This document shows positions 1 through 17,116 of a DNA stretch of 43,256 bases, piece after piece; within the stretch, counting starts at the first letter, position 1, and every line of letters begins with the position of its first letter. The translations under genes were made by a program, and so were the position numbers. This DNA is from a bacterium (GTDB lineage Bacteria > Bacillota > Clostridia > Oscillospirales > Acutalibacteraceae): assembly GCA_030535285.1 (NCBI GenBank), contig JAUMXX010000002.1, forward strand, positions 1 to 43,256, read 5' to 3'. Below the pieces are notes generated by a model, which had not been told where the DNA came from, searched no databases, and worked only from the letters and a program-made list of their open reading frames with translations.

Positions 1-3000
1 ATCACCGTCGCCACCTACATCTGTATACTGACCGTCAACAATACTGTCACGATAAGCATAACATCTGGCACCACCGGCACTATAACTCATGTCCCAACCC
101 GGACTTACAGGACTATCTTTAAACGAAGAACCATCAGCATTATGATAGTAGAAAGGATCATATAAGAATTCGTCGTTTAAAACGGTTAAATACCAAATTG
201 GATCATCTGTTTGCGGCCAGAGATAGACCGTCCAGTTACGTTCACGAAGATTTCCGTCATAAACAACATCACAGGCACCACTGAAGAAACCGCCGCACTG
301 ACCATTGTACCAATAATTATCAACAAAATAGATATTCTGACGCGGTCTTCTTATTGTTACTGTAAGGGTCGTTGTTTCGGGATCAACAGCCAACGGCCTG
401 TCAATCCTTATCCTATCACCCGGTAACAGCTCAACAACCTTACGTGTCTGACCGTCGCCCGGTCCGTACCTAACATATAACTGTCCATTCAAGAATTCTC
501 TTTCACTTACTTTTTGTACCTTGAATATTGTATTTAAACCGCTAGCATCCTTCATTGGAACCTGCTCCCCGGAAACAGGGTCGGTTTCATACGCAAACTT
601 CATTGTACCTGTATAAGCAGGGACCATATCAGCAACAAACAATTCACGGTTGTTGGTTGTGTTAGAAGTGAATTGACAGTCACCGTAATAGAATCCGTCA
701 CCCCACAAACCTGTAACACAATACAAGAAATCGGTGTTTTCGAACATTGAGGAATTCATACATCCCTCACTCCAGTTGATTTCATGTAAAGTTGTATTAT
801 TGAAATACCAATACTTAGACTGCTGACTTGCACGATCTAACATTATACCGCCATAACTATCATTGTATGAAGCGTAACGAACATCCTCAAACCTTACATT
901 TATTGCCTGATCGGCTACTAAAAAGCGTCCGCCGGCTTCAGCACGTACTAAACTCGTAAGGTAACCGGTGTTTTGATTGATAGGACTTCCGTTAATGTTA
1001 ATCTGTCCGCCGGTATAGTCAAATTCGAATCTTACATCTTCGAAATATAGGTTCTGCGCATCACTACCGACAAAATTAAGTGTAGTTTTTCTCCTCGAAC
1101 CGATAACAGAAATATCTTGCATGCCGGAATTTTTAGTGAAGTACAGCAAACTACTAGGCAAATCGCCAACCTGCCAGTAGGTAGGATTGAATATGATTTG
1201 TGTAGTTTCTTTTTCTTGACCCTTAAGAATAACATTTTCAGGGATTATTACCGGAGTCATCAATCTATAAATACCGGATGGGAGATAAACTGTTCCGCCA
1301 CCGTTTTCATGGGCAATATTACAAACACTTGATAATATCGGTGTGAAGTTCTGTGCGCCTTTACAGGTTGAACCATAATCAACAACATTATAAACCTTCG
1401 AAGCAAATGTACTTCTCAGATCGACATCAACCTTGAAATCAAACGGGATGGACCAGCAAGACGAATTACCATATCCACTGTAAACCCAAAGTTCATATTC
1501 GCCAACTGTAACGGTTTCAGGAATCGTAACATTGAATGAATATACTGATCTGACTTTTGTAATATCAATTCTTTCAGCAACAACATTACCCGACTTATCC
1601 TTTATGCAAACAGCAAGTTCTGTCTTTGCTCTTGCAAGATTTTGCTCGTCGGTAAGGCTTCTGTCATAGTCGGGGAACAAATTCTCACCGACAACAACCA
1701 GATTTCCGCCGGCAGTTGTAGTTTCACCATCATCACCTATTGTATACTCTACAAACGGCGCATTCAAATACAATGTGTTTGTAGTAGCAATCGGGTGTGT
1801 TGTTGTAACATCGTCATATGTTATCTTAACTGAATACATACCTTTAGCAAACGTCGGAGGAATTATAAACTTGACGCTTCTCTCGGTTGTTTGCAATATA
1901 TCTGCCTCAACTGCTTCGCTGTCATTCCAATACTCAGCAGTCGGGAGGATTGAAATATCATCAGAATCCAAAACACCTGCTGAACTATATGACTCACGAT
2001 CAGCGTAGCCATACTCAAGATTAGTTAAATCAACGGTGTTGGGAACCGGACAGATTTCAACCTTGTCTATATTATCACCAACATAATAACCATTAATCAA
2101 GGCAACATCACCGGGATTTAAGAAGGTGTTGCTTGTATAGAATACATGGGTCTCGCCTTTTTTGCGCTCATAATCAGGGTCTCGCTCTACATATAAGGCC
2201 TCATAATTATCATATATATAGTACTCTGAATTACTTACAACACATCCGTTAAGAACGTTAAGAGCATACGGTTTGCCCGTAGGAAGCGGCAGAGTTGACT
2301 TGACTCTATTGCCCTCAGCATCGGTAATTATTGTTACAACCGAATTCGTTTCATAATTAAAGGTTTGTTCGACATCAAGTGTTAAGATGACACCTTTCGG
2401 GAGAGTGTTGTAATAAAAGTAATGCACTTGAGAAGCATTGTAGTCATTTACAACGTTTCCTCTATATGGATATCCGTCATCGGCTGCAAATTCCCTGAAC
2501 GCCATATAAGTGAAGTTTCCGGAATCAGCGTAAGCACTAACAAACGCATAGTAATTCCAGTTATCGGTATTCATAGTCATAGTGAATTTACGAGAAACGA
2601 GCTTGTATCCATTTAATGCCATGTACTCATCTTTAACACCAAGCGCCGGGGTAATACCTTTAACTGCAAGTGCCATATTGTCAGGATCTTCAGCCGTAGG
2701 CATACTAATCCAGGCAGACTCTGTTCTGTAGGTATCACCAACATTTGCCCAGCGGCGTATACCGTTTTCAAAATCGTCTTTGAAAACATACGCCAGTTGA
2801 CCGCTTTCAGGGTCAATACGCTGTTCAACAGTAGCCGGATCTACAGGGTCGAAGGTTTGATCGGCACATTCCTGCGTTTCAAGTGCATCCTGCAACGGTT
2901 TAAGGAACGCCGGCATAAAGGGCAAATATCTCTTGGTCTTCTCATCATAAGAATTATAAGTATCTGCCACATCTTTTATTGCAGGTTCATCAAGCTTTGA

Positions 3001-5010
3001 AACGGTATTTTCATCCAGATATATAATATCGGGATATTTATCCATCAATTCCGAAACACGTCTGTGCTCGGGTGTATCTTTATATTTAAATGAGAAATCA
3101 TCGAAATAATAATCTCTGTTGATATCTCCTGCCCTGATAGCAAAATTCGTTGAAAGAGGATTTTTAAGACTAAGCTTTCCAAACGATTTAGAAACCGTAG
3201 GTAATCCAGTGGTAGCAAAGCCAACAAAAACACCGACATTATCATACATATTTTTAATAGCAAAGTGTACACCCTCATCAAGATAGGTGAGGTTAAAGGT
3301 ATACCATTTATTAATAGGTGTATCTAAAATGGTATTGGCCTCTTCTTCATAGTATATCGGTGAATATTGTACAGTACCTCCGCTACTTTCTTTACCATCA
3401 ACACAGGTTCTCGGTCTTGTAACAATACCAGTTCCGGCTGCACTAATCCTGAGCAAACTATAATTTTGATCATCAACATAATCATAGATAACGTCAAGCG
3501 ACTCGCTATTCTTAAGATAGGCCTTAAAGGTTACTTCATATAACTCATTATCCGCTTGAATATATGGAGACAACATAAATTTGGCACTTCCGTTATCAGA
3601 CCTAAACACAAGTATATCATTACTGTCATTTCCGTTACCCTTTACTGTGTTTGAGGAAACATACAAATTGTTCTTATTGTTTAGATTTACGGAATACAGC
3701 GGATCAATATGTGTTGGATTCTCAAAATCAAGATTTGTAACATCTGTACCGGAACTTGCAGCCGCCTTTAATAACTCCTCCAATTTAGCCTCGGCATCAA
3801 CAAGTTTCTGCAAATTGCTGATTTGATAACGTTCAATACCCGACAAACCATCAACAAACTTGCGGATGTACTCAAGTTTTTTTGCGTCATCAATTGTCAA
3901 CACATCTAAATCAGGGATTGCATCAATAATCATAGGATAACAAGCCGGTCCATACTCATAGAAAACAACATTGTCGACCATGGGCGAACCTGCAATTGTT
4001 CTTGAAGCGAACGCAACTTTACTGATCATATCAGAACTGGCCAACGCAAACTCAGCAGTAACAGTAGCAGAAGAAGCATTCAAACCACTGATTTTAAATA
4101 AATATACCTTATCGTATATATCATAGGTCATTTCAGTTGACAACCACTGACCCGACTTAAAGGAAACAGGATTGCCCAACACATCTACTAAAGATGTAAC
4201 ATTGCTTACATTCTGAATGAATTTTATAGGTGTTGTATCCTGATGCGTGCTGACAACCTTCTTCACGGTAGAACCGTCGATAAATATACCGGTCCAATTA
4301 TGGTCAGAAGTGTAATTAGTTACAAACAAACTCTCGGTTGTGGAATCCGAATTGTAATACCAATCCGCAGAAATATTGAATATTTCGGCATTTGAGCCTA
4401 AATAATCAGAGGTTACACTATTGATAAGATAGTGATCCTTAGTGTGATTAACATTCAGCTCTGCCTTTGTATTTGTAAAATTCTTTCTCATCGACAACGC
4501 ATGGTTTTTCAAATCAGGGGAAGGAGGTAAAATATCATCCTCTACTATACCCCAAAATCCATTTGCAGTAATATCGGTTGTGTTTTCTCTTTGACGTGTG
4601 TCCTGAGCCGTGGTTCTTTGCCCGGCCGCATTTGTATAGACAAGACGTGTTATCTTAGCCTCAACCTGCCAGGCCAACTCACCTTCAAAATTATCAACGA
4701 ATTTTGCGCCCGATTTAAGTTGGTTATAGACATCAATAAAAGCGTCTATTCTCGCATCGGTTGCGGAATTTCTTACAGTCTCGTCAACTGTAATATATTC
4801 ATTATAAATAATTTGAGCATCATTAAGGTCCTCGGCTATAAAAGGACCCGTTTTTAAAAAGTCTTCCATTTTTGTGACAGTTGATACTAATTCAGACGGC
4901 AATGTAGCAGCAAAAGCAGTCATGGGCAAAACGCACTCGATTACCGACACTGAAAGAATGGCAACTGTAAGCAAAACAGAAAGTACTCTTTTTATGCTAA
5001 TTTTTCGCAT
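1..5010 (-). CDS. Giant secreted protein with lectin-like modules and pectate-lyase-type beta-helix (C-terminus cut by window)
   Basis: The frame is open for 1670 codons from an ATG at 5010 to the window edge, so the C-terminus is missing. GGAGG lies at 5018-5022. Residues 1 to about 34 are a signal peptide (MRKISIKRVLSVLL then TAFA). Then come a helical FIVAR-like stretch (about 40-100), a concanavalin-type sandwich (about 107-350), another helical stretch, a second sandwich (about 425-643), more helices, and a third sandwich starting at DDFENG (about 738-938). Two Ig/IPT-like domains follow (about 950-1195), then from about 1203 a Pectate_lyase_3-type beta-helix (VYNVVDYG, GGGTVYLPSGIYRL). 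Such beta-helices are usually polysaccharide lyases or hydrolases. I cannot assign catalytic residues. It is the last visible gene of the surface/ABC operon and probably acts on or binds a glycan outside the cell. A sorting signal, anchor or dockerin may lie beyond the window. Confidence 0.9.
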   Translation of the reverse strand, partial: MRKISIKRVLSVLLTVAILSVSVIECVLPMTAFAATLPSELVSTVTKMEDFLKTGPFIAEDLNDAQIIYNEYITVDETVRNSATDARIDAFIDVYNQLKSGAKFVDNFEGELAWQVEAKITRLVYTNAAGQRTTAQDTRQRENTTDITANGFWGIVEDDILPPSPDLKNHALSMRKNFTNTKAELNVNHTKDHYLINSVTSDYLGSNAEIFNISADWYYNSDSTTESLFVTNYTSDHNWTGIFIDGSTVKKVVSTHQDTTPIKFIQNVSNVTSLVDVLGNPVSFKSGQWLSTEMTYDIYDKVYLFKISGLNASSATVTAEFALASSDMISKVAFASRTIAGSPMVDNVVFYEYGPACYPMIIDAIPDLDVLTIDDAKKLEYIRKFVDGLSGIERYQISNLQKLVDAEAKLEELLKAAASSGTDVTNLDFENPTHIDPLYSVNLNNKNNLYVSSNTVKGNGNDSNDILVFRSDNGSAKFMLSPYIQADNELYEVTFKAYLKNSESLDVIYDYVDDQNYSLLRISAAGTGIVTRPRTCVDGKESSGGTVQYSPIYYEEEANTILDTPINKWYTFNLTYLDEGVHFAIKNMYDNVGVFVGFATTGLPTVSKSFGKLSLKNPLSTNFAIRAGDINRDYYFDDFSFKYKDTPEHRRVSELMDKYPDIIYLDENTVSKLDEPAIKDVADTYNSYDEKTKRYLPFMPAFLKPLQDALETQECADQTFDPVDPATVEQRIDPESGQLAYVFKDDFENGIRRWANVGDTYRTESAWISMPTAEDPDNMALAVKGITPALGVKDEYMALNGYKLVSRKFTMTMNTDNWNYYAFVSAYADSGNFTYMAFREFAADDGYPYRGNVVNDYNASQVHYFYYNTLPKGVILTLDVEQTFNYETNSVVTIITDAEGNRVKSTLPLPTGKPYALNVLNGCVVSNSEYYIYDNYEALYVERDPDYERKKGETHVFYTSNTFLNPGDVALINGYYVGDNIDKVEICPVPNTVDLTNLEYGYADRESYSSAGVLDSDDISILPTAEYWNDSEAVEADILQTTERSVKFIIPPTFAKGMYSVKITYDDVTTTHPIATTNTLYLNAPFVEYTIGDDGETTTAGGNLVVVGENLFPDYDRSLTDEQNLARAKTELAVCIKDKSGNVVAERIDITKVRSVYSFNVTIPETVTVGEYELWVYSGYGNSSCWSIPFDFKVDVDLRSTFASKVYNVVDYGSTCKGAQNFTPILSSVCNIAHENGGGTVYLPSGIYRLMTPVIIPENVILKGQEKETTQIIFNPTYWQVGDLPSSLLYFTKNSGMQDISVIGSRRKTTLNFVGSDAQNLYFEDVRFEFDYTGGQININGSPINQNTGYLTSLVRAEAGGRFLVADQAINVRFEDVRYASYNDSYGGIMLDRASQQSKYWYFNNTTLHEINWSEGCMNSSMFENTDFLYCVTGLWGDGFYYGDCQFTSNTTNNRELFVADMVPAYTGTMKFAYETDPVSGEQVPMKDASGLNTIFKVQKVSEREFLNGQLYVRYGPGDGQTRKVVELLPGDRIRIDRPLAVDPETTTLTVTIRRPRQNIYFVDNYWYNGQCGGFFSGACDVVYDGNLRERNWTVYLWPQTDDPIWYLTVLNDEFLYDPFYYHNADGSSFKDSPVSPGWDMSYSAGGARCYAYRDSIVDGQYTDVGGDGD

Positions 5011-5083: not shown

Positions 5084-6727
5084 TTAACCTGTTACTAAGC
5101 CGTCATAATATCTTCCCATATCAATCCAATCAACAATGTGTTGCGGAATGTTTTCATTCCAATTTCCACCGATATAGTTATCATAATCAAGTGTTCCATA
5201 ATCCGGATGGCTATGTGTGCCAAACGGATCTTTAACCGCTTTTACAATAATGTTATCAAGATATACTGAACTTTCAAAGGTTGCTATACCTATATTGCCT
5301 CGTCCGAGAACACGGGGATTAGTGCCAATTTTAACTGAAGAACCTATTTCAACAAAATTATGTCTTATCAGGTCTTTTTTATCATCAAAGGAAACCCTGA
5401 TTATATTATCAACAACCTTAACTGATAAAGTATGCCATTGTCCGTCAGCATAGTCATCAACAGTAACACTACCTAACTCATAGCCATTGGCAGTAATTCC
5501 ATTAGTAGCCTGGTTTTTATAATATAGTGCTAATTTGTTGCGGCCGCTTAAAACAGCAGAGTAATTTGAAATTCCGTATAATTCATTCTTCATATTTCTG
5601 ACCGCTAATTTAACAACCGCCTGAGAAGCATTGTCTGCAGCAGTGAACATAAAGTCCATACTTGCTATATAATCCGACATTTTCTCATTACCGGCATAAA
5701 AATTGTCTTCATCAAAGTCCATAAACCAGACCCTGTTACCGTATTCTATGCCCTCACGCTTTTCCTTAAGGGTAATAATATTTGCTTCATAAGGACCGTC
5801 CCAAATTGGATTGTTCTTTTCTTCTTTACCGGTTAGGATAGATCTATCAGTGAAAGATTCATAGAATAAAACATCATCTGTCATCGGCAATTCTTCTTCG
5901 AAGACAACATCCTTATCGGGATCTTCAACATTATCTCCCGGAGAATCGGGAACAACCGTACCATCAGCCGTTCCGAAACCGGAAAATGTCAATTCCTCAA
6001 AGCACATTGTAGATGTAACAGCTTTATTTCTTGAATAATTTGCGAAACCGGCGTAAAGCGGTCCATCTGATCTTATTTTAAGTTTCAGAGCCATTTCAAC
6101 CATTTTGCTGCTACCTTTAAGGAGATACGCGAAACCTATCTTCTGACCAACCTTTGTTATACGCAATCTAATAGGATACTTAACGTCAAATTCTACATAG
6201 GATGCAGTCGTCGCACCATCCTTAGAAGTTCTGTAAACTAACATAAGACGATTATCCGGTCTCACATGAAACATAACCTCAGGATCATTGGGTCCAAGTC
6301 CGGTTCTGATCATAAGGCCTGCACCTGCATCACTATGCAATTGATCTTTCGGATAATAATCTAGTATAGTTGCTTCCATAGTAAAATTATCATTATCTGT
6401 TCCCGCAACAGGAAACTCTTTATAAGCAAAAGTAACGTCATCGTTTGTATCCCAAACACAGAACGCGTTAGAAGAAAGCTCATACGTACCGTTATTAGCC
6501 GATGCATTTTTCAAGCTGCCTGAACAGTCGTATCCCGGCGTTCCGTAATTAACCTCGAGATTTGAGTTAATATTTACAAGGGTTAGGTCGGGATTGGTTT
6601 CATTAAATTCCGCAGCAGATACGGTAGTTGTTGGGAAGCAAAACAGCCCGACAATTAATGCCATAGTAAGTGCTGCACTGAGAACTTTGAATATATTTCT
6701 CTTTAACACCGCTGAATTCAACCTCAT
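5084..6727 (-). CDS. Secreted protein with two concanavalin-like beta-sandwich domains
   Basis: This encodes 547 residues with a signal peptide (hydrophobic segment about 13-38, ending VSAAE). Residues about 40-250 and 285-500 look like two lectin/LamG-type sandwiches: the first has GAGLMIRTG and LYAGFANYSRN, the second DDVLFYESF, DGQWHTLSVKV and VYLDNIIVKA. Between them is an acidic, proline-containing linker (DSPGDNVEDPDKDV). The last about 45 residues (from GTHSHPDYGTLDYDN) form a distinct tail rich in Asp, His and Trp that I do not recognise. It has no C-terminal membrane segment and no dockerin calcium loops. Its ATG overlaps the TGA of the cohesin gene (ATGA), so the two are translationally coupled, with GAGGTG as ribosome-binding site. 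A carbohydrate-binding role is inferred from the fold pattern and the neighbouring sugar transporter. No catalytic motif is seen. Confidence 0.85.
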   Translation of the reverse strand: MRLNSAVLKRNIFKVLSAALTMALIVGLFCFPTTTVSAAEFNETNPDLTLVNINSNLEVNYGTPGYDCSGSLKNASANNGTYELSSNAFCVWDTNDDVTFAYKEFPVAGTDNDNFTMEATILDYYPKDQLHSDAGAGLMIRTGLGPNDPEVMFHVRPDNRLMLVYRTSKDGATTASYVEFDVKYPIRLRITKVGQKIGFAYLLKGSSKMVEMALKLKIRSDGPLYAGFANYSRNKAVTSTMCFEELTFSGFGTADGTVVPDSPGDNVEDPDKDVVFEEELPMTDDVLFYESFTDRSILTGKEEKNNPIWDGPYEANIITLKEKREGIEYGNRVWFMDFDEDNFYAGNEKMSDYIASMDFMFTAADNASQAVVKLAVRNMKNELYGISNYSAVLSGRNKLALYYKNQATNGITANGYELGSVTVDDYADGQWHTLSVKVVDNIIRVSFDDKKDLIRHNFVEIGSSVKIGTNPRVLGRGNIGIATFESSVYLDNIIVKAVKDPFGTHSHPDYGTLDYDNYIGGNWNENIPQHIVDWIDMGRYYDGLVTG

Positions 6728-8739
6728 ACTAAAGGCACCTCACTTTCAAAAATAATCGGCTCAGCATTATTATCTCTATTATTCTTTTTAATCAAATAGA
6801 AATATGCCCACAGTAAAGAAGCAAGGCAAATCATTGATACACCTAAAATACCCATTAAAACATACGCGGTAATACCCATCTTACCTGTCATAACTTTAAC
6901 AAGGAAGTCACCTGTGTTAGCAGCAACAGTTTTAACAACCGTCTTTTCAACCGGATCAGACTGCTTGTAAACTGTTTTTGTAAGGGTAACCGTGTTAGTT
7001 ATTGTGGTAACCTCTCCACCTGCAGAATCATCAGATTCTGTGCTGTCAAATTCTAATGATTTCTCATACATCGCATTTACATTTTCAACCTGTTTTGCCA
7101 AAATCTCAAGCACATCTTCGTCTAAGAACTGAAGCACCTCGTACGCAATTGCTATCTCGGTTGCATCAGAAGCCGAAATTGTGTCTGGTGTCTGGCTTAA
7201 AATCCACTGGAATCTTGTAATGTACGCCCTTGCTTTATCTTCAGCAGGATTAGAATTATCTACGTTTTTATTTAATTGATAATAAAGTTCTAAAACACCA
7301 AGTTGTTCGTTATATTGGGAATACAAATCCGTAAACTGTTCAAAATTTATTATCAATGGATCAAGATCGCCTCTTGCAGATGTCAACCAATCACCCATAG
7401 CCAAAATATAAGGCAATTTATCACTGTTTGCAGGATCTGAATAATAGGTTAACGTTTCACCGTAACCTGCAAACCAATCTTCAAATTGTTTTTTAGCCAA
7501 AGCCTTAGTCAGTTCATTGATTTTTTCCTGAGTGCTATTAGCAAACCCCTGAGCATACTCCGAAAGTCCTTTTAATCCTTCAGTAGCTTTCTCAAGATAA
7601 ACAATAGCGTTTCCTTTTGCTCCTCCGGTAATAACTTCATTGACAGGATCACCGTTCTCGTCTTTACCAACATACTCATATTTATTTTCAGCTGACAATT
7701 GAGCAATTGTAGTAGGTGTTAGGTCGAAAACATACGGATACAACGCCTTATACTCATCAATTTCTTCCTGGGCAAATTTTGCTAAGAATTGATCAGCCAA
7801 ACCAGGATTTTGTTCCCGAATCGCATTAAAAAGTGAATCCACCTTTGATTTTTCGGTGTTCATTTGAACCCTTAAACCTGGATCAAGTTTATAAAACTCA
7901 ACATAAGCATCAACGATAGGCTCATACATATTTTCAGGGATTGAATCCGTTCCGAGTCCTAATGCTGCTGCATGTTTTGTTTTAAATTGGTTAATCTTTG
8001 CATCATTATCAGAACTTGGATTGTTAGCCTTTTCATAGGCCTCTTGGTATGCAGCTATTGCCAAAGTCAACACATTTGAATTAGTAACCATTTCCTTTTC
8101 GGTTGGACTTAATAAGGAATACGCGTCCATTGCAGCATTTATCTTTGCAAGACTCTCTTCGGTATATTCAACAGTGCCAATATTATTTATCAAAGCGATA
8201 ACATGATCGACAACAGAATTAGCGCCGATAACTATCGAACCCGATACATTTGCAACAGGCATCTTAAACTCCGTGCTTACTAGTTTACCCCCTACAACAG
8301 TAGAAGAATATGCTGTCTTAACTCTCATAGTAACAGTCTGTGTCGAGTTAGCACTTGCAGCAGGTAAAACATTAAATCTAAATGTTAAAATCTTATCACC
8401 TGCATTAAATGTTTGAGAGGTGGGCGAGGTCCAAATGATTTGGATTGTTCCACCGTTTTGTGTTGTAAAAATATCTTCTAATTTATCCGACTTCATTTCA
8501 ATTAATTTAAGACTCGTATCGGTGAAGCTTACCGACATCTCTAAGCCACTAATGTTCGGAATTTGACTTGAAGCGCAAAAATCAATTTCGTATGTTCCTC
8601 CCCTTTCAGCGTTTGAAACGCTTGTAGCGGAAAATGAAATGGTTTCACCGGCTGCCGAGACATTATAAGCCATCTGGCAACACAAAAGTGAAAATACCAT
8701 TATCACACAAAGAACACCACTTAGTATCCTTTTGCTCAT
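6724..8739 (-). CDS. Membrane-anchored cohesin-domain protein
   Basis: The chosen start is the ATG at 8739 (MSKRILSGVLCVIM), preceded by GGGGAG with 9-nt spacing. An in-frame ATG 39 bp upstream lacks a good site. It gives 671 residues. A signal peptide (1 to about 30) is followed by a cohesin-like domain (about 31-170) with the typical ISGLEMSVSFT, GDKILTFRFNV and VASP-like strands. A FIVAR-like helical module follows (IALINNIGTVEYTEE, about 177-240), then a long helical region to about 590. A Thr/Val-rich strand stretch (TITNTVTLTKTV) leads into one transmembrane helix (about 630-655) and a short tail. Cohesins classically bind dockerins, but none is visible here. Single-membrane anchoring rather than an LPXTG signal is odd for a scaffold. 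Its role is probably to display or tether a partner near the ABC importer. The domain call is from sequence pattern only. Confidence 0.8.
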   Translation of the reverse strand: MSKRILSGVLCVIMVFSLLCCQMAYNVSAAGETISFSATSVSNAERGGTYEIDFCASSQIPNISGLEMSVSFTDTSLKLIEMKSDKLEDIFTTQNGGTIQIIWTSPTSQTFNAGDKILTFRFNVLPAASANSTQTVTMRVKTAYSSTVVGGKLVSTEFKMPVANVSGSIVIGANSVVDHVIALINNIGTVEYTEESLAKINAAMDAYSLLSPTEKEMVTNSNVLTLAIAAYQEAYEKANNPSSDNDAKINQFKTKHAAALGLGTDSIPENMYEPIVDAYVEFYKLDPGLRVQMNTEKSKVDSLFNAIREQNPGLADQFLAKFAQEEIDEYKALYPYVFDLTPTTIAQLSAENKYEYVGKDENGDPVNEVITGGAKGNAIVYLEKATEGLKGLSEYAQGFANSTQEKINELTKALAKKQFEDWFAGYGETLTYYSDPANSDKLPYILAMGDWLTSARGDLDPLIINFEQFTDLYSQYNEQLGVLELYYQLNKNVDNSNPAEDKARAYITRFQWILSQTPDTISASDATEIAIAYEVLQFLDEDVLEILAKQVENVNAMYEKSLEFDSTESDDSAGGEVTTITNTVTLTKTVYKQSDPVEKTVVKTVAANTGDFLVKVMTGKMGITAYVLMGILGVSMICLASLLWAYFYLIKKNNRDNNAEPIIFESEVPLV

Positions 8740-8777
8740 ATACTCACACTCCCCTTTTTTATCATAAACCTGAAACA

Positions 8778-10406
8778 TTATGCCGCAGCATCTGAATTCG
8801 CAGCAATATACTCATCAACCTGCTTTTGAATGTTTTCCTTATATTCTGTCATTCCGGCAGTCTCACAATCCTTGATCATTTTCTCATAAGTTGTCTCAAA
8901 CTCTGCATCATTTTTAGTTGTCAACTTGCCGGCATTAGACCGTGCATTTTCAATGTTTGCGATAAGATCTCCTAATTTTGATGTATCAGGTCTGAATTTA
9001 TATAAAGGAGTTTTCCTTAATGTCGGTTTAACATTGAGCTGATAATTTAATGCATCTTCTACCTGCCCGGAAACAATATTGGGAGTGCGATATGTAAGAT
9101 AAACATTACCAACAACCCAATGGGGAATTCCATATATGCAGTTGCTATCAGCTTGTATAGTATAATCTACACCATATGCACAATCAGCATTTTCCTCAGT
9201 TCCGTCACCCAAGGTATAGTGATAGGTACCGTACTCTGCCGCATACTCGGAATCTTTTTCAAAACCATAAACTAAAAGATTCAAAAGATCATTTGCTTCT
9301 GTTCCGCGCTCAGAACGCAGCAAATCAATCAACTTGATTGCACGTCCGGGGTTATGAGAAGTAAACGGAATTGCAAGATATGTTGCCTCACTACCTATAG
9401 TCGATACACCATTATAACCCTGCTCTATTTTATCAAGATAAAGGGTGTATGATTCCGGCTCACCGTATTTATCCATATTAACCTTTATTCCACGCTCATC
9501 TGCCTGGATCCAGTTGTTAGTAAGGGTGAAATTAATCGGAGCCTTACGGGAACCGTTAATGTTGTTACCGGTTGTTACATAGTCAGCCTTGAGCCAACCT
9601 TTTTGATACCACGATTGGAGTAATTTCTGTACCATTTTTTCCTGAGGCAACTCATAATTGGCAATTACCTTAACATCATCGGTCCAAACGTCATACGACA
9701 AAAGGTCAGATACGCTTTCATATCCCCTGTTAACCAAAGCATAAAATACGGAAGTTTCAGGATTCCAGCCAACAGTATCAGTATCAACCAACTTTTTAGC
9801 GTGAAGCTCTGCCATATAACTATCTAATAAATCAATCATTTTCTGAGTTGTATGGTAGTTATTGTGGGCTTCACTTAAAAATGCATCGACATCAAAAGAG
9901 TCGTAACAAGAATAAGGAATTTCCAAACCTACCGACTGCTTTAACAACGGCTGTTGATTAGGAATTGCATATAATTCCCCGTCAACAGTTCCCGAATAAT
10001 ATGCATCAACCCACTCCTCGCGCTCGGCCTGAATATTAGGAGCATACATATCGATAAGTTTATTCAGTCCAAGATATGATCTGTTGGTTATAAGACTCTT
10101 CATATCAAAAGAATATCCGGTCCACGCAATATCAATCTGTTTTTTTGCTGCCATCCAGTTTGACCAGTTTTCTGCATTCAACTCAATAAAATCAACCGTT
10201 GTGTTTGGCAGAAGTTTTTGAAGATTCTTATTAAACTGCTTCCAAACGATCTCATCATCCTGGTGACCCAAGTGGGTTGTAGCCCAAACAAGTTCAACCT
10301 TTTTATCCGGATCGTCTTCCAAAGATGCCAACTTGGTTCCGCCACAAGCCGATACACTCAATGCTAAAACCAAAACCAGAACAAGTGCAAATAATCTTTT
10401 AACCAC
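8778..10406 (-). CDS. Extracellular sugar-type solute-binding lipoprotein (LipO/DUF3502-like)
   Basis: The protein has 542 residues from a GTG start (MVKRLFALVLVL) 8 nt after GGAGG. A TTG five codons upstream would sit on top of that site. The lipobox is ALSVSACGG, so Cys is lipidated and the protein is held on the outer face of the membrane. The body has the pattern of large family-1 binding proteins of complex-saccharide importers: ELVWATTHLGHQDDE near the N-terminus, IDIAWTGYSFDM, LYAIPNQQP, and a C-terminal part resembling DUF3502 (KPTLRKTPLYKFRPDTSK). It lies just downstream of two permease genes in the same operon, so it should deliver an oligosaccharide to them. Length fits the LplA/LipO group (about 500-560). 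The substrate cannot be read from the sequence. Confidence 0.9.
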   Translation of the reverse strand: MVKRLFALVLVLVLALSVSACGGTKLASLEDDPDKKVELVWATTHLGHQDDEIVWKQFNKNLQKLLPNTTVDFIELNAENWSNWMAAKKQIDIAWTGYSFDMKSLITNRSYLGLNKLIDMYAPNIQAEREEWVDAYYSGTVDGELYAIPNQQPLLKQSVGLEIPYSCYDSFDVDAFLSEAHNNYHTTQKMIDLLDSYMAELHAKKLVDTDTVGWNPETSVFYALVNRGYESVSDLLSYDVWTDDVKVIANYELPQEKMVQKLLQSWYQKGWLKADYVTTGNNINGSRKAPINFTLTNNWIQADERGIKVNMDKYGEPESYTLYLDKIEQGYNGVSTIGSEATYLAIPFTSHNPGRAIKLIDLLRSERGTEANDLLNLLVYGFEKDSEYAAEYGTYHYTLGDGTEENADCAYGVDYTIQADSNCIYGIPHWVVGNVYLTYRTPNIVSGQVEDALNYQLNVKPTLRKTPLYKFRPDTSKLGDLIANIENARSNAGKLTTKNDAEFETTYEKMIKDCETAGMTEYKENIQKQVDEYIAANSDAAA

Positions 10407-10457
10407 TGTGTTTACCTCCAAATTTGTCTTATATTAATCTGCTTTAAACAATATACA

Positions 10458-11341: not shown

Positions 11342-12298
11342 CTAAAACATAGCTAAACTGCTATCATACTTTTTAACAAGCTGATTAATTCCGCGAACTA
11401 ACATCATACTGACAAGTGAATTGAGAATATTCATCGCAGTTCCTCGGCCAAAAGAATCTGTGCCGCCCTTCAACATTCTCAGCATGTACATACCAAAGTT
11501 ATCGGTTGTTGAACGTAACGAAGAAGAATTCAAGGTAAGACTGTACATAACATCGTAACCTGATGCCAAAATGTTACCAACCTGCGTAATCAAGCACATA
11601 GCAAGCATCGGCTTTAAAACCGGTATTGAAACATGCCAGATTTGCTTAAGTTTGCCCGCTCCGTCAATAGCAGCCGCCTCAAACAAGCAGGGGTCAATCG
11701 ACAGAAGACAAGAATAATAATAAATTGATGACATTCCGGAATCTTTCCAAAGGATAGAAATAGTTATAATAAATGGCCAAGCTATGGGCGTATCATACCA
11801 CAAAATAGGTTCTATCCCAATAAATTCAAGAAGTTGATTTGCTAAACCGTCATCATATGATAGCAAGGCAAAAACGATATATCCGATAATTGCCCACGAC
11901 ATAAAGGACGGTAATAACATTGTTGTCTGATAGATTTTAAAGGCTATTTTATTCCTAACTTCATACAACAACAACGCCACTAAAACACCCATAATAATAT
12001 TGAGGGTAATAACTTTTGAAATACTATAAAATACCGTATTTCTCAAGCATCTCCATAAGTCATCAGAGTAGAATAAGTTTTTGAACTGATCTAAGCCACA
12101 CCAAGGACTGCCGAAAATACCGTCAACATAGTTAAAATTCTTAAATGCCAAAAGCAAACCAAATAACGGCAAAACTCCAAAAAGAATCGTTAAAACGAGT
12201 CCCGGTAAATTCATTAACGTATAAGTTAGATTATTAACGAAATATAAACTTCTTGTTTTTTTATCTTTTGTTAAACTACTTTTGCCCGCCGCAACCAA
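11342..12298 (-). CDS. Carbohydrate ABC transporter permease (LplB/UgpA type)
   Basis: The chosen start is TTG at 12298 (MVAAGKSSLTKDKKTR), 8 nt after AAGGGG. An upstream in-frame TTG at 12319 lies before that site. The result is 318 residues with six predicted transmembrane segments. The ATPase-coupling loop reads CLFEAAAIDGAGKLKQIW, followed by HVSIPVLKPMLAM. The N-terminal segment LPGLVLTILFGVLPLFGLLLA and GLDQFKNLF are typical of LplB permeases. It is the heterodimer partner of the next gene and lies 21 bp downstream of the GLUG-like gene, so all are probably co-transcribed. Loss of the canonical ATG is shared with neighbouring genes of the locus, which use GTG or TTG. Confidence 0.92.
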   Translation of the reverse strand: MVAAGKSSLTKDKKTRSLYFVNNLTYTLMNLPGLVLTILFGVLPLFGLLLAFKNFNYVDGIFGSPWCGLDQFKNLFYSDDLWRCLRNTVFYSISKVITLNIIMGVLVALLLYEVRNKIAFKIYQTTMLLPSFMSWAIIGYIVFALLSYDDGLANQLLEFIGIEPILWYDTPIAWPFIITISILWKDSGMSSIYYYSCLLSIDPCLFEAAAIDGAGKLKQIWHVSIPVLKPMLAMCLITQVGNILASGYDVMYSLTLNSSSLRSTTDNFGMYMLRMLKGGTDSFGRGTAMNILNSLVSMMLVRGINQLVKKYDSSLAMF

Positions 12299-12319
12299 GA
12301 GAACATCCCCTTTACACAA

Positions 12320-13978
12320 TTACTTACTGCTGTAGATGTCTTCATACTCCGGTTGTTCAGGGGCATCTACATCTTGTTCTTCAGTTTCCTCATCAAATTG
12401 AACATCATCAATCAAGAAACCTTCATCGGAAACTGTACGGTTTTTATTTAAAAATCTGAAAATCAAAACTATAACAAATACACTTGCAGCCATCACTATC
12501 AATGTAAGCACCGCTAATGTGATAATGAGTACATTTTCAGCGGTAGTTCTTTTAACCAAAGACTCATTAATTATTGTTGTAGTACTGCCTTTTTCCTGAT
12601 TTGACTCAGCAATCTCTTCGGATTGTGCTTCCTCGGTCTTTTTATCTTCGGTTGTTGCTTCACCTGTCGTTGATGCATTACTGTCTGTAGTAGCTGCATT
12701 GTTTGAAGCTGTACCCTGAGATGCTGTTGTGGCTTTTCCTAAGTCAGCCTCGGTCTTTATCGGATTTAATCCGGCTATCTGAGGATATTTTGTTGCATCA
12801 GCAGGTACCGTCCATCCTGGAAGTTTAGAAAATACTGCTCTGATTTCAGCTAATGAAGCAGGCTGAAATCTCTGCTGCAGACCATTTGTTGCTGTAGATA
12901 TGTAACAATTCTTCTGCTTTCCTATATTCGACGGTGTATTGGGCGCTGTACCTTTACCATGTACTGCTGTTGAAGTCCAGCAGTTTTGCGATATATCTAT
13001 TGCTTCAGCATTTGCACTGAAACTTGAATTGGTTGCCAATCCTTCTGTGTAACAATTGATATATTTTGTTCCCCGGCTTCCATATCCGTCAAAACCGCCT
13101 ATGTTCATCCAGCCGCCTCTCTGGTTGCCGCTGTAAAAACATCCCTCATATATTGTATTAACCGAACTGCCGCAGAATCCCGCTGCGTTCCACAAAACGC
13201 CGCCTGTGCTTGATTCTGCGTAACTATAACATTTTGTTACCTTGCTCTGCTTATTTGTCGAAAGCAATACCTTCCCGTTGTTTCCGTCAGATGTTACCTT
13301 GTTGTTAGTCTGTCCTATCATAGTCGCTACAAAGTTTCCGCAATCACACTGTATCTTTCCGGTTACTCCGCAGTTCTCCATAGTGATTCCCACTGCTAAA
13401 CCGACAAATATAGCTGCTCCCTGTTCGTTTACTCCAAGTCTGGTTCCTTCTTTTCCTGCATCTCCCGAACCGCCCGGAATATTCACATATACATTTGCAT
13501 TTAAAATTACTATGTTGCTGAACGATGCATTATTTACACATCCGAACAAACCTGCTTCCCATCCCGAACTTCCGTCCGGTTTGTATAAAGCGTTGCTCTC
13601 TGCTACGTTCTTCCAACTATACTTTACACTCATCTTCAGATTCTTTATCGCATATATCGGCTTGCCCGATGCATCGGTATCACATGTAAGGCTTCCCGTG
13701 AACGGTGTCTTTATTGATCCGATCGGCTTGAAATTCGATATGCCCGACAAATCTACCGTTGCCGCCAATTTGTAGTTGGCAGAAAGATTCTTCCTCATAT
13801 TATTCAGCTGCTCTGCCGTCTTTACCAAATACGGATCACTCTTGCTGCCGCGTCCCTCATATTCTGCTGCTGTAACCGGCATCAATGTTATCACCGACAT
13901 CATCACAAAACACATCAATACAGCAAGTGTTAACGATGCTATCCTTAAAATAGCTTTGATTCCATTGCTTCTCTTCAA
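12320..13978 (-). CDS. Membrane-anchored GLUG-like surface protein, copy A
   Basis: This is a 552-residue protein from a TTG start (MKRSNGIKAILR) after GGAGGAG. The signal peptide is about 1-38 (ending MPVTAAE). The ectodomain (about 38-400) starts with SKSDPYLVKTAEQLNNM, the hallmark opening of GLUG/M26-N-like repeat proteins, and continues with beta-solenoid-like repeats containing several Cys (NCGVTGKIQCDCGNF, YEGCFYSGNQ). A Thr/Ser/Glu-rich stalk (about 410-465) follows, then one transmembrane helix (about 480-510) and an acidic tail ending YEDIYSSK. The first 465 residues are identical to the 14452-16059 product, but the anchor and tail are unrelated. It heads the operon with the ABC permeases. 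A role as a ligand-binding or adhesive surface protein is inferred; no enzyme motif is seen. Confidence 0.88.
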   Translation of the reverse strand: MKRSNGIKAILRIASLTLAVLMCFVMMSVITLMPVTAAEYEGRGSKSDPYLVKTAEQLNNMRKNLSANYKLAATVDLSGISNFKPIGSIKTPFTGSLTCDTDASGKPIYAIKNLKMSVKYSWKNVAESNALYKPDGSSGWEAGLFGCVNNASFSNIVILNANVYVNIPGGSGDAGKEGTRLGVNEQGAAIFVGLAVGITMENCGVTGKIQCDCGNFVATMIGQTNNKVTSDGNNGKVLLSTNKQSKVTKCYSYAESSTGGVLWNAAGFCGSSVNTIYEGCFYSGNQRGGWMNIGGFDGYGSRGTKYINCYTEGLATNSSFSANAEAIDISQNCWTSTAVHGKGTAPNTPSNIGKQKNCYISTATNGLQQRFQPASLAEIRAVFSKLPGWTVPADATKYPQIAGLNPIKTEADLGKATTASQGTASNNAATTDSNASTTGEATTEDKKTEEAQSEEIAESNQEKGSTTTIINESLVKRTTAENVLIITLAVLTLIVMAASVFVIVLIFRFLNKNRTVSDEGFLIDDVQFDEETEEQDVDAPEQPEYEDIYSSK

Positions 13979-13999
13979 TTTGATCTCCTCCGTAACTTA
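12582..13999 (-). repeat. 1418-bp direct repeat, copy A
   Basis: This segment reads base-for-base the same as 14663-16080 (offset 2081) wherever I compared it, and both the coding and the opposite-strand translations agree throughout. It begins about 21 bp before the TTG start, just ahead of the GGAGGAG site, and ends at the GGCAGTAC codons that close the stalk. Sequence outside both ends is unrelated. No terminal inverted repeats, target duplications or transposase are seen, so it is not an insertion sequence. Confidence 0.95.
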
Positions 14000-14152
14000 G
14001 AAGTTATTTATATAAATCAAACACAAACAGACTGCTTCTCAATAATTGTGAGTGCCATTTGTGAATTTTATATAAATAGATTCCTTATATTTTAGTGCAT
14101 AACAGACAATTTTCTACATAATTAAAAAACTGCTCCATGCTGATACAAATAC

Positions 14153-14218
14153 ATTATACAATTTGCACTAAAGTTTTTATAGAGTATTTATTGCTTTAAA
14201 ATATCTCAATATTGTTTT
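14153..14218 (-). promoter_or_regulatory. Putative activator-dependent promoter and operator of the main operon (P2)
   Basis: On the minus strand a TATAAT box (14153-14158) has no good -35. Upstream lie two direct repeats: AAAACAATATT (14208-14218) and AAAGCAATAAA (14187-14197), 21 bp apart. The proximal AAAGCAAT ends 31 nt before the -10, the same geometry as at 16131-16196. Two half-sites two helical turns apart and next to the -35 are typical of AraC/XylS activators. The leader to the start codon would be about 165 nt. Confidence 0.6.
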
Positions 14219-14297
14219 TTTGTTTCATTTTGAGAACAATATAATACCTTTTGGTTCATTCATTTGTACACTTTTATGAATTTTTGAAACTTTTTTG

Positions 14298-14323
14298 ATA
14301 GCAATATTACCAAAAGCAATATA
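14298..14323 (+). promoter_or_regulatory. Extra operator-like pair in the intergenic region
   Basis: ATAGCAATATT (14298-14308) and AAAGCAATATA (14313-14323) match the operator half-site with one mismatch each, but in the opposite orientation and 15 bp apart. They lie about 80 bp upstream of P2. The 470-bp gap 13979-14451 otherwise holds only P2, the leader and a terminator, and no gene. Confidence 0.35.
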
Positions 14324-14376
14324 ATCCGACATTATTTAGTTTAATTTTTAACGAATATTTTTGGTACTTTGTAACA

Positions 14377-14420
14377 AAAACCTATCCGGATGTTGATACA
14401 CACAACATCGGATAGGTTTT
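14377..14420 (-). terminator. Intrinsic terminator of the copy-B gene
   Basis: A stem of 11 plus 7 bp (AAAACCTATCC/GGATAGGTTTT and GATGTTG/CAACATC, one bulged G) with a 7-nt loop lies about 30 bp past the stop codon at 14452. On the minus strand it is followed by a T run. It separates copy B from the operon headed by copy A. Confidence 0.85.
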
Positions 14421-14451
14421 AATTTAAACATTTATTCAGATTTTCACGTGA

Positions 14452-16059
14452 CTATTCAGTGTCACTCTCCGCACCCTGAGGTGTTTCTTCTGCATCTGCG
14501 TCTGTTGCGGAAGCCGTTGCTTTTTTTGCGAATTTTACAGCCAAAACCACAACAAATATGCTCGCAACCAGGAACAAGACGGTTAGCACTAACAGAACAA
14601 TTAATACTATTTTTTCATTTAAAGTCATCGAAAGTGTCTTGTCCTCAATAACAGTTGTGATTGTACTGCCTTTTTCCTGATTTGACTCAGCAATCTCTTC
14701 GGATTGTGCTTCCTCGGTCTTTTTATCTTCGGTTGTTGCTTCACCTGTCGTTGATGCATTACTGTCTGTAGTAGCTGCATTGTTTGAAGCTGTACCCTGA
14801 GATGCTGTTGTGGCTTTTCCTAAGTCAGCCTCGGTCTTTATCGGATTTAATCCGGCTATCTGAGGATATTTTGTTGCATCAGCAGGTACCGTCCATCCTG
14901 GAAGTTTAGAAAATACTGCTCTGATTTCAGCTAATGAAGCAGGCTGAAATCTCTGCTGCAGACCATTTGTTGCTGTAGATATGTAACAATTCTTCTGCTT
15001 TCCTATATTCGACGGTGTATTGGGCGCTGTACCTTTACCATGTACTGCTGTTGAAGTCCAGCAGTTTTGCGATATATCTATTGCTTCAGCATTTGCACTG
15101 AAACTTGAATTGGTTGCCAATCCTTCTGTGTAACAATTGATATATTTTGTTCCCCGGCTTCCATATCCGTCAAAACCGCCTATGTTCATCCAGCCGCCTC
15201 TCTGGTTGCCGCTGTAAAAACATCCCTCATATATTGTATTAACCGAACTGCCGCAGAATCCCGCTGCGTTCCACAAAACGCCGCCTGTGCTTGATTCTGC
15301 GTAACTATAACATTTTGTTACCTTGCTCTGCTTATTTGTCGAAAGCAATACCTTCCCGTTGTTTCCGTCAGATGTTACCTTGTTGTTAGTCTGTCCTATC
15401 ATAGTCGCTACAAAGTTTCCGCAATCACACTGTATCTTTCCGGTTACTCCGCAGTTCTCCATAGTGATTCCCACTGCTAAACCGACAAATATAGCTGCTC
15501 CCTGTTCGTTTACTCCAAGTCTGGTTCCTTCTTTTCCTGCATCTCCCGAACCGCCCGGAATATTCACATATACATTTGCATTTAAAATTACTATGTTGCT
15601 GAACGATGCATTATTTACACATCCGAACAAACCTGCTTCCCATCCCGAACTTCCGTCCGGTTTGTATAAAGCGTTGCTCTCTGCTACGTTCTTCCAACTA
15701 TACTTTACACTCATCTTCAGATTCTTTATCGCATATATCGGCTTGCCCGATGCATCGGTATCACATGTAAGGCTTCCCGTGAACGGTGTCTTTATTGATC
15801 CGATCGGCTTGAAATTCGATATGCCCGACAAATCTACCGTTGCCGCCAATTTGTAGTTGGCAGAAAGATTCTTCCTCATATTATTCAGCTGCTCTGCCGT
15901 CTTTACCAAATACGGATCACTCTTGCTGCCGCGTCCCTCATATTCTGCTGCTGTAACCGGCATCAATGTTATCACCGACATCATCACAAAACACATCAAT
16001 ACAGCAAGTGTTAACGATGCTATCCTTAAAATAGCTTTGATTCCATTGCTTCTCTTCAA
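14452..16059 (-). CDS. Membrane-anchored GLUG-like surface protein, copy B
   Basis: This is a 535-residue protein from a TTG start (MKRSNGIKAILR) after GGAGGAG. Signal peptide, GLUG-like ectodomain and Thr/Glu-rich stalk are identical to those of copy A through residue 465 (QEKGST). The juxtamembrane segment (ITTVIEDKTLSMTL), the transmembrane helix (about 487-515) and the Ala/Asp/Glu-rich tail (ATDADAEETPQGAESDTE) are different. It is transcribed alone: operator-like repeats and a TATAAT box lie upstream, and a strong terminator follows. It probably shares its regulator with the main operon. Same ligand surface with two different anchors suggests separate complexes or localisation, which is inference. 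It could also be an assembly effect, so copy number should be confirmed. Confidence 0.88.
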   Translation of the reverse strand: MKRSNGIKAILRIASLTLAVLMCFVMMSVITLMPVTAAEYEGRGSKSDPYLVKTAEQLNNMRKNLSANYKLAATVDLSGISNFKPIGSIKTPFTGSLTCDTDASGKPIYAIKNLKMSVKYSWKNVAESNALYKPDGSSGWEAGLFGCVNNASFSNIVILNANVYVNIPGGSGDAGKEGTRLGVNEQGAAIFVGLAVGITMENCGVTGKIQCDCGNFVATMIGQTNNKVTSDGNNGKVLLSTNKQSKVTKCYSYAESSTGGVLWNAAGFCGSSVNTIYEGCFYSGNQRGGWMNIGGFDGYGSRGTKYINCYTEGLATNSSFSANAEAIDISQNCWTSTAVHGKGTAPNTPSNIGKQKNCYISTATNGLQQRFQPASLAEIRAVFSKLPGWTVPADATKYPQIAGLNPIKTEADLGKATTASQGTASNNAATTDSNASTTGEATTEDKKTEEAQSEEIAESNQEKGSTITTVIEDKTLSMTLNEKIVLIVLLVLTVLFLVASIFVVVLAVKFAKKATASATDADAEETPQGAESDTE

Positions 16060-16080
16060 TTTGATCTCCTCCGTAACTTA
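14663..16080 (-). repeat. 1418-bp direct repeat, copy B
   Basis: This is the second copy of the repeat at 12582-13999. The first differing bases are at 14662 (T against A) and 16081 (A against G). The tract covers ribosome-binding site, signal peptide, ectodomain and stalk only. Confidence 0.95.
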
Positions 16081-16130
16081 AGGTTAAATAGTTGACATTC
16101 ACGACACTACAATATCCTAAACCATTCTTG

Positions 16131-16196
16131 ATTATACCTTTTAAGCAGTTACTTTTGCACCACAAATATTGCTTTTGTATATAATAATATTGCTTT
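16131..16196 (-). promoter_or_regulatory. Putative AraC-type operator and promoter of copy B (P1)
   Basis: On the minus strand two perfect AAAGCAATATT direct repeats (16186-16196 and 16165-16175) lie 21 bp apart. Thirty-one nt after the proximal AAAGCAAT is a TATAAT box (16131-16136). The -35 is poor, consistent with activation. The half-site to -10 spacing equals that of P2 although the rest of the two promoter regions differs. The araC-type gene ends 27 bp upstream of the distal repeat. Confidence 0.65.
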
Positions 16197-16222
16197 GTTT
16201 TGTTAAAGAAACCACATATACT

Positions 16223-17056
16223 TTAAACCTCAAGGTTTTTTTGTTTAAAATTGCCATCATTATTCTTTTTAAACTCTAGCGGAGACATCCCTACCACCTT
16301 TTTAAAAATCTTGCAAAAGACGGTACTGCTTGCAAAACACAGCAAATCCGAAACTTCATATATTTTCATATCGGTGTTTAATAAAAGAAGTTTTGATTTT
16401 TCAATCTTCAATTCATAAACATATTCCATAATGGTTTTACCCGTCTGATTTTTAAACAAATGACAGAGATACGATTTGCTGATATGTACCTCTTTACAAA
16501 GTTCATCTAACGAAAACTTTATGTTTTGATTCAATTTGCTCTTAATTGTTCCTACTATATTAATAAGATTCTGTGACGAGTTGTGAGAAAACAACTCCGG
16601 TACTCCCTGTGTTTCGCGCTTTAAAGAAAACAATGTGATAATCAGTTCTATTATCTTAGCAACAAGTTCTGCAAAAACAAACTCAGAATCTAGTGTAATG
16701 ATATTATAACTATCTTTGAATATTTTATCTACTTTAATATAAGCAGTGTCAACTCCCCTCATGGTAAAACTCTGTATACCAAAGGTGAACAAAGGGTTTA
16801 GTTTATCAATACGGCAAAGATCCAAAACACCACGAAAAACGCTTTCATCAATCTCGAGTATATTATATGTACTGCCCGGTTCGAGTTTAAACTCACCGCC
16901 ACCGTATATATTTATTTTAAATTCACCCGATGCGATTCTGCTTTTATTGTTATCATCCTTTTCAATATTAACCCGTTGAACAAGATATATCATGTTATCC
17001 TTATCTTGAAAGGTGGTCTCAAGTTTATAATGATAAAAAACATTTATCAGATCCAT
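16223..17056 (-). CDS. AraC-family transcriptional regulator
   Basis: The chosen start is ATG at 17056 (MDLINVFYHYK) after GGAGTG. An ATG nine codons earlier has no site. The product has 277 residues. The N-terminal about 160 residues are a likely ligand-sensing domain without a recognised motif (GEFKLEPGSTYNILEI). The C-terminal about 100 residues are the double helix-turn-helix: SLDELCKEVHISKSYLCHLF, then KIYEVSDLLCFASSTVFCKI and the signature FKKVVGMSPLEFKK. It is the first gene of the minus-strand surface/ABC locus and the obvious candidate to bind the AAAGCAATATT repeats in front of both GLUG-like genes. The inducer is probably the imported saccharide. A weak match to the half-site (AACGCAATATA, 17138-17148) overlaps its own -35, hinting at autoregulation. 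Confidence 0.93.
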   Translation of the reverse strand: MDLINVFYHYKLETTFQDKDNMIYLVQRVNIEKDDNNKSRIASGEFKINIYGGGEFKLEPGSTYNILEIDESVFRGVLDLCRIDKLNPLFTFGIQSFTMRGVDTAYIKVDKIFKDSYNIITLDSEFVFAELVAKIIELIITLFSLKRETQGVPELFSHNSSQNLINIVGTIKSKLNQNIKFSLDELCKEVHISKSYLCHLFKNQTGKTIMEYVYELKIEKSKLLLLNTDMKIYEVSDLLCFASSTVFCKIFKKVVGMSPLEFKKNNDGNFKQKNLEV

Positions 17057-17116
17057 AATCTTCACTCCATTGCACAACAACAAAATAGCACTAAATAAAT
17101 ATTTTATGACAATATT

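What the first reader, a model, noticed from the sequence alone, without database searches (positions are those of the whole stretch)
12582..16080. Two surface proteins with identical ectodomains but different membrane anchors
The 1418-bp tracts 12582-13999 and 14663-16080 appear identical, including synonymous positions, and start just before the ribosome-binding site and stop at the end of the stalk. The promoter regions on one side and the membrane helix and tail on the other are unrelated. This is the pattern of recent gene conversion or recombination limited to the exposed module. It could keep two differently anchored receptors on the same ligand, or supply a recombination substrate that would delete or swap anchors.
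Basis: partly seen in the sequence, partly recalled or inferred. Interest (0 to 1): 0.75.

Follow-up and report, generated by a model that had tools for sequence, protein, structure and literature searches.

The report
Tandem surface-protein genes, ectodomains identical
A gut-type bacterium carries two side-by-side copies of a cell-surface protein gene whose exposed parts are letter-for-letter identical while their membrane anchors have drifted far apart, most likely because the cell recently copied one exposed part over the other, although a short-read assembler may have made the copies look more alike than they are.

Summary
The 1418-bp tract at 12582-13999 is repeated exactly at 14663-16080. 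It covers the ribosome-binding site, signal peptide, ectodomain and stalk of two tandem minus-strand genes, 12320-13978 and 14452-16059. One claim fails. The membrane anchors are not unrelated: the stalk end and helix align at 18/46 identical residues, score 97 against 30.2±5.2 for shuffles. Only the last residues of the cytoplasmic tails and the upstream DNA differ. In both relatives found, one copy sits at the same place, at the head of the same ABC-importer genes. I infer a tandem duplication of a whole gene, old enough for anchor third-codon positions to match at only 41%, followed by recent homogenisation of the exposed part, most simply by gene conversion. A strong terminator-like hairpin lies between the genes, so expression differs more plainly than anchoring does. 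Exact identity is not independently verified. The genome is a fragmented draft without 16S rRNA, the repeat is longer than short reads span, and metagenome assemblers merge near-identical paths (PMC8021871). The tandem layout itself seems sound; exact identity and copy number need long reads. A neat but known kind of event.

The parts
12582..13999 (-). Identical tract, copy 1: ribosome-binding site, signal peptide, ectodomain, stalk
   Evidence: 1418/1418 identical to 14663-16080
14663..16080 (-). Identical tract, copy 2
   Evidence: these are the only two copies in the genome assembly
12320..13978 (-). Gene 1, 552 aa, TTG start; signal peptide, ectodomain, stalk, one membrane helix, longer acidic tail; first gene of the ABC-importer genes
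   Evidence: ORF and translation; position matches the single-copy gene in L010 and L057
14452..16059 (-). Gene 2, 535 aa, TTG start; same first 466 residues, homologous helix, shorter tail
12320..12581 (-). Anchor and tail of gene 1
   Evidence: homologous to the gene 2 anchor and to the L010 and G082 anchors
14452..14662 (-). Anchor and tail of gene 2
   Evidence: 55% nucleotide identity over 46 codons, 41% at third positions
14377..14420 (-). Intrinsic-terminator-like hairpin with U-run after gene 2
   Evidence: minimum free energy -24.5 kcal/mol, z -3.8; missed by the simple scan, whose rules differ
14000..14376 (-). AT-rich upstream region of gene 1, presumed promoter region
   Evidence: position; promoter-like matches are at chance level
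16081..16222 (-). AT-rich upstream region of gene 2, between it and the AraC-type regulator gene
   Evidence: position
11342..12319 (-). ABC importer permease 1 (BPD_transp_1)
   Evidence: Pfam; syntenic in L010 and L057
10458..11330 (-). ABC importer permease 2 (BPD_transp_1)
   Evidence: Pfam; syntenic
8778..10421 (-). Extracellular solute-binding lipoprotein (DUF3502 C-terminus)
   Evidence: Pfam; 37% identical to the L010 protein
6724..8778 (-). Single-pass surface protein; its L010 relative scores above the Pfam Cohesin cut-off
5084..6727 (-). Secreted laminin-G / 3-keto-disaccharide-hydrolase-like protein (below cut-off)
   Evidence: 30% identical to the L010 protein
16223..17083 (-). 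AraC-family regulator gene, upstream of gene 2 and codirectional
   Evidence: Pfam HTH_18 and HTH_AraC

Best explanation
Two tandem paralogues of a single-pass surface protein that belongs to an oligosaccharide ABC-importer locus. A whole gene was duplicated in this lineage long enough ago for the anchor segments and upstream regions to diverge widely. Later, RecA-type recombination copied one gene's ribosome-binding site to stalk over the other (gene conversion), so the exposed parts are now the same or nearly so. The likely use is to supply one surface binding protein from two transcription units: gene 2 alone, ending at its own terminator, and gene 1 with the importer. Shown: the exact repeat as assembled, homologous anchors, single copies in two relatives, the hairpin between the genes. 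Inferred: conversion as the mechanism, its recency, separate expression, and glycan binding.
For: 1418 bp exact with no difference at 214 fourfold sites, against 41% third-position identity in the adjoining homologous anchor segment. One age cannot give both values. Anchors are homologous to each other and to anchors in L010 and G082, with paralogue anchors (39%) about as far apart as orthologue anchors (42-44% for gene 1). Single-copy gene at the head of the same importer genes in L010 and L057. No other copy in the assembly to act as donor. Terminator-like hairpin between the genes. Similar selective homogenisation is documented for Siglec-11/16 (PMC5701461); [quoted passage not shown]
Against: No second strain or species with both copies could be found, so concerted change between strains is untested. 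The genome is a fragmented draft lacking 16S rRNA, so exact identity may be assembler-made. The drop at the tract ends is abrupt.
Confidence: 0.6

Rival explanations
1. Assembly consensus: the tandem duplication is real but the two ectodomains differ at some positions. A metagenome assembler collapsed the parallel paths and wrote the same consensus twice; copy number may also be wrong.
For: 152 contigs for 1.34 Mb and no 16S rRNA found, as is typical of short-read drafts. metaSPAdes collapses larger bulges than SPAdes and uses strain paths to resolve repeats (PMC8021871). A perfect 1418-bp repeat exceeds short-read spans.
Against: The assembler and read type are not known. Some real high identity is needed for paths to merge, above all at both ends. 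The unique 663-bp segment joined to the tract at both ends argues that the tandem layout itself is real.
Confidence: 0.27
2. Recent partial duplication or domain capture: the ectodomain segment was recently copied onto another gene that already had its own promoter and anchor, so the two genes were not full paralogues before.
For: Sharp boundaries and dissimilar promoter regions.
Against: The two anchors are homologous to each other and to the anchor of the single-copy relatives, and no other gene of this family exists in the assembly. The recipient was therefore most likely a member of the same family, which amounts to conversion.
Confidence: 0.08
3. Young whole-gene duplication with very fast evolution of the anchors and upstream regions, without any conversion.
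For: Tails and promoters can evolve quickly; no tool result supports it specifically.
Against: Third positions and the membrane helix itself are diverged near saturation while 214 fourfold sites next to them are unchanged. Selection on tails cannot explain that contrast.
Confidence: 0.03

Closest known systems
[quoted passage not shown]
   Same: Nearby paralogues with ectodomain sequence homogenised by repeated gene conversion and separate membrane/cytoplasmic parts
   Different: Vertebrate immune receptors with known opposite signalling and measured shared ligands; here no signalling motif, ligand or second species is known
Concerted evolution of duplicated bacterial genes such as tufA/tufB and flagellin fla (PMC6053082)
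   Same: Two genomic copies kept near-identical, attributed to gene conversion
   Different: There the coding genes are homogenised and shown across many species; here only the exposed module is identical and one genome is available
GLUG-motif (PF07581) and M26 N-terminal repeat surface proteins
   Same: Distant relatives of the ectodomain in the same bacterial family score above the GLUG cut-off
   Different: The window proteins themselves give no GLUG match at E 0.1, and the G082 orthologue is below cut-off

Membership tests
Gene-converted (concertedly evolving) paralogue pair | A tract of identity, synonymous sites included, embedded in diverged homologous sequence | tested here: met
   0 of 1418 differences versus 45% nucleotide differences in the adjoining homologous anchor segment; as assembled, not verified by reads
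Gene-converted (concertedly evolving) paralogue pair | Paralogues within a genome are closer to each other than to orthologues in other species | tested here: inconclusive
   True against L010 and G082 (37% identity), but these have one copy each, so a lineage-specific duplication gives the same result
Gene-converted (concertedly evolving) paralogue pair | Concerted change in both copies in several strains or species | not testable with these tools
   No congener or second strain held
Paired receptors (Siglec/CEACAM-like) | Near-identical ligand-binding ectodomains with anchors or tails of opposing function | tested here: inconclusive
   Ectodomains identical; the anchors are homologous helices and no Pfam signalling domain was found in the tails
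Paired receptors (Siglec/CEACAM-like) | Same ligand bound by both proteins | not testable with these tools
   Needs binding assays
GLUG-motif protein (PF07581) | Score above Pfam's gathering cut-off | tested here: not met
   No GLUG match for either window protein at E up to 0.1; G082 orthologue 15 bits against cut-off 20.5

The most novel reading that the evidence does not exclude
A bacterial counterpart of paired receptors: selection keeps two separately expressed surface proteins on one ligand by recurrent conversion of the exposed module only. The 1.4-kb direct repeats would also allow deletion of the 2081-bp unit, which would remove the terminator and gene 2's anchor and fuse gene 2's promoter to the importer genes.
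Probability: 0.12. Interest if true: 0.6.

Novelty: new member of a known kind. Interest (0 to 1): 0.3.

Why it matters
If long reads confirm it, this is a clean small case in which conversion stops at the membrane anchor on one side and at the ribosome-binding site on the other. It is useful for asking why a bacterium would keep two separately expressed copies of one surface binding protein beside a sugar importer. It is also a reminder that exact repeats in draft metagenome genomes need read-level checks.

Tried and rejected
An apparent raised GC at third positions of the tract, which might have hinted at biased conversion, was my frame error (two bases trimmed from the 5' end); in the correct frame it is 0.400, ordinary for the window. 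Structure prediction of the ectodomain with two sequences gave mean pLDDT 39.7 and was not used for fold searches. Solved structures: no relevant match. Viral contigs: no relative. Wider profile searches in the family and order gave one further full-length relative, G082, and no second tandem pair. A chimeric join of two strains as source of the tandem layout: judged unlikely, because the unique middle segment joins the tract at both ends.

Full report
OBSERVATION. A direct comparison on the diagonal of 2081 finds one exact run, 12582-13999 against 14663-16080, 1418 bases, and no other repeat of 25 bases or more in the window. The whole draft genome contains no further copy at DNA or protein level. 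Both tracts lie in minus-strand genes: gene 1, 12320-13978, 552 aa, and gene 2, 14452-16059, 535 aa. The tract starts 21 nt upstream of the TTG codons, taking in GGAGGAG, and covers the signal peptide, the ectodomain and the Ser/Thr/Glu-rich stalk, 466 identical residues in all. The 465 whole codons contain 214 fourfold-degenerate sites, none of which differs.

The anchors are not unrelated. Aligned, they give TTIINESLVKRTTAENVLIITLAVLTLIVMAASVFVIVLIFRFLNK and TTVIEDKTLSMTLNEKIVLIVLLVLTVLFLVASIFVVVLAVKFAKK, 18 of 46 identical, score 97 against 30.2±5.2 in shuffles. Both also align with the anchors of two relatives, while the helix of another surface protein in the same locus does not. At DNA level the 46 codons match at 55%, third positions at 41%. 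So the flank on this side is diverged homologous sequence. The extreme cytoplasmic ends and the upstream regions show no convincing similarity.

SURROUNDINGS. Downstream of gene 1 follow two ABC permeases, a solute-binding lipoprotein, a single-pass protein whose L010 relative has a Cohesin match above cut-off, a laminin-G-like secreted protein and a very large secreted protein with a pectate-lyase/rhamnogalacturonase-like domain. An AraC-type regulator gene lies upstream of gene 2 and reads the same way. L010 (Ruminococcaceae bacterium UBA5396) and L057 (genome G082, same family) have one copy of the gene directly before the same first permease. A strong hairpin followed by U residues lies just after gene 2, -24.5 kcal/mol, z -3.8, so gene 2 probably ends there and gene 1 starts a new unit with the importer. 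Promoter-like matches are at chance level and decide nothing.

WHAT IT IS. One gene became two by a tandem duplication of the whole gene. The relatives show the single-copy state, and the anchors have since diverged about as far between the copies as between genera. The exposed part must then have been homogenised recently, since one age cannot give both zero differences and near-saturated third positions. Gene conversion, or an equivalent recombination between the tandem copies, is the simplest mechanism. Direction of copying cannot be told.

THE CAVEAT. The assembly has 152 contigs for 1.34 Mb, no 16S rRNA was found, and the few contigs looked at are short. A perfect 1418-bp repeat is longer than short reads and usual inserts. 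Metagenome assemblers collapse similar paths into a consensus (PMC8021871), and my inference is that such a consensus can be threaded twice. Exact identity is therefore what the assembly says, not a verified fact. The tandem layout is firmer: the unique 663-bp segment between the tracts carries gene 1's upstream region and gene 2's anchor and is joined to the tract at both ends, which a mixture of single-copy strains would not give. Copy number could be above two.

FUNCTION. The ectodomain has no Pfam or NCBIfam match. More distant relatives in the family score as GLUG-motif proteins and the nearer orthologue comes close. The structure prediction failed to reach useful confidence. From its place at the head of an oligosaccharide importer and beside pectin-type enzymes, glycan or cell-wall binding is likely but inferred. 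'Same ligand, two anchors' is possible; 'same protein, two expression units' fits the sequence at least as well.

NOVELTY. Homogenised duplicates are known in bacteria (PMC6053082), and module-limited conversion with different tails is known in vertebrate paired receptors (PMC5701461). The case is tidy but of a known kind.

Noticed in passing
window 1-5010, minus strand: Very large secreted protein (over 1670 aa, cut by the contig end) with a pectate-lyase/rhamnogalacturonase-like domain; a homologue lies at the same importer locus in L057.
   Followed up: partly
window 6724-8778 and L010:13509-15260: The importer locus encodes a single-pass surface protein whose L010 relative contains a Cohesin domain above cut-off, suggesting a dockerin partner or scaffold linked to a sugar importer.
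   Followed up: partly
L010:4061-6409: GH95-like (fucosidase-type, recognised by eye only) glycosidase gene next to the same importer locus in UBA5396, a hint at the substrate.
   Followed up: no
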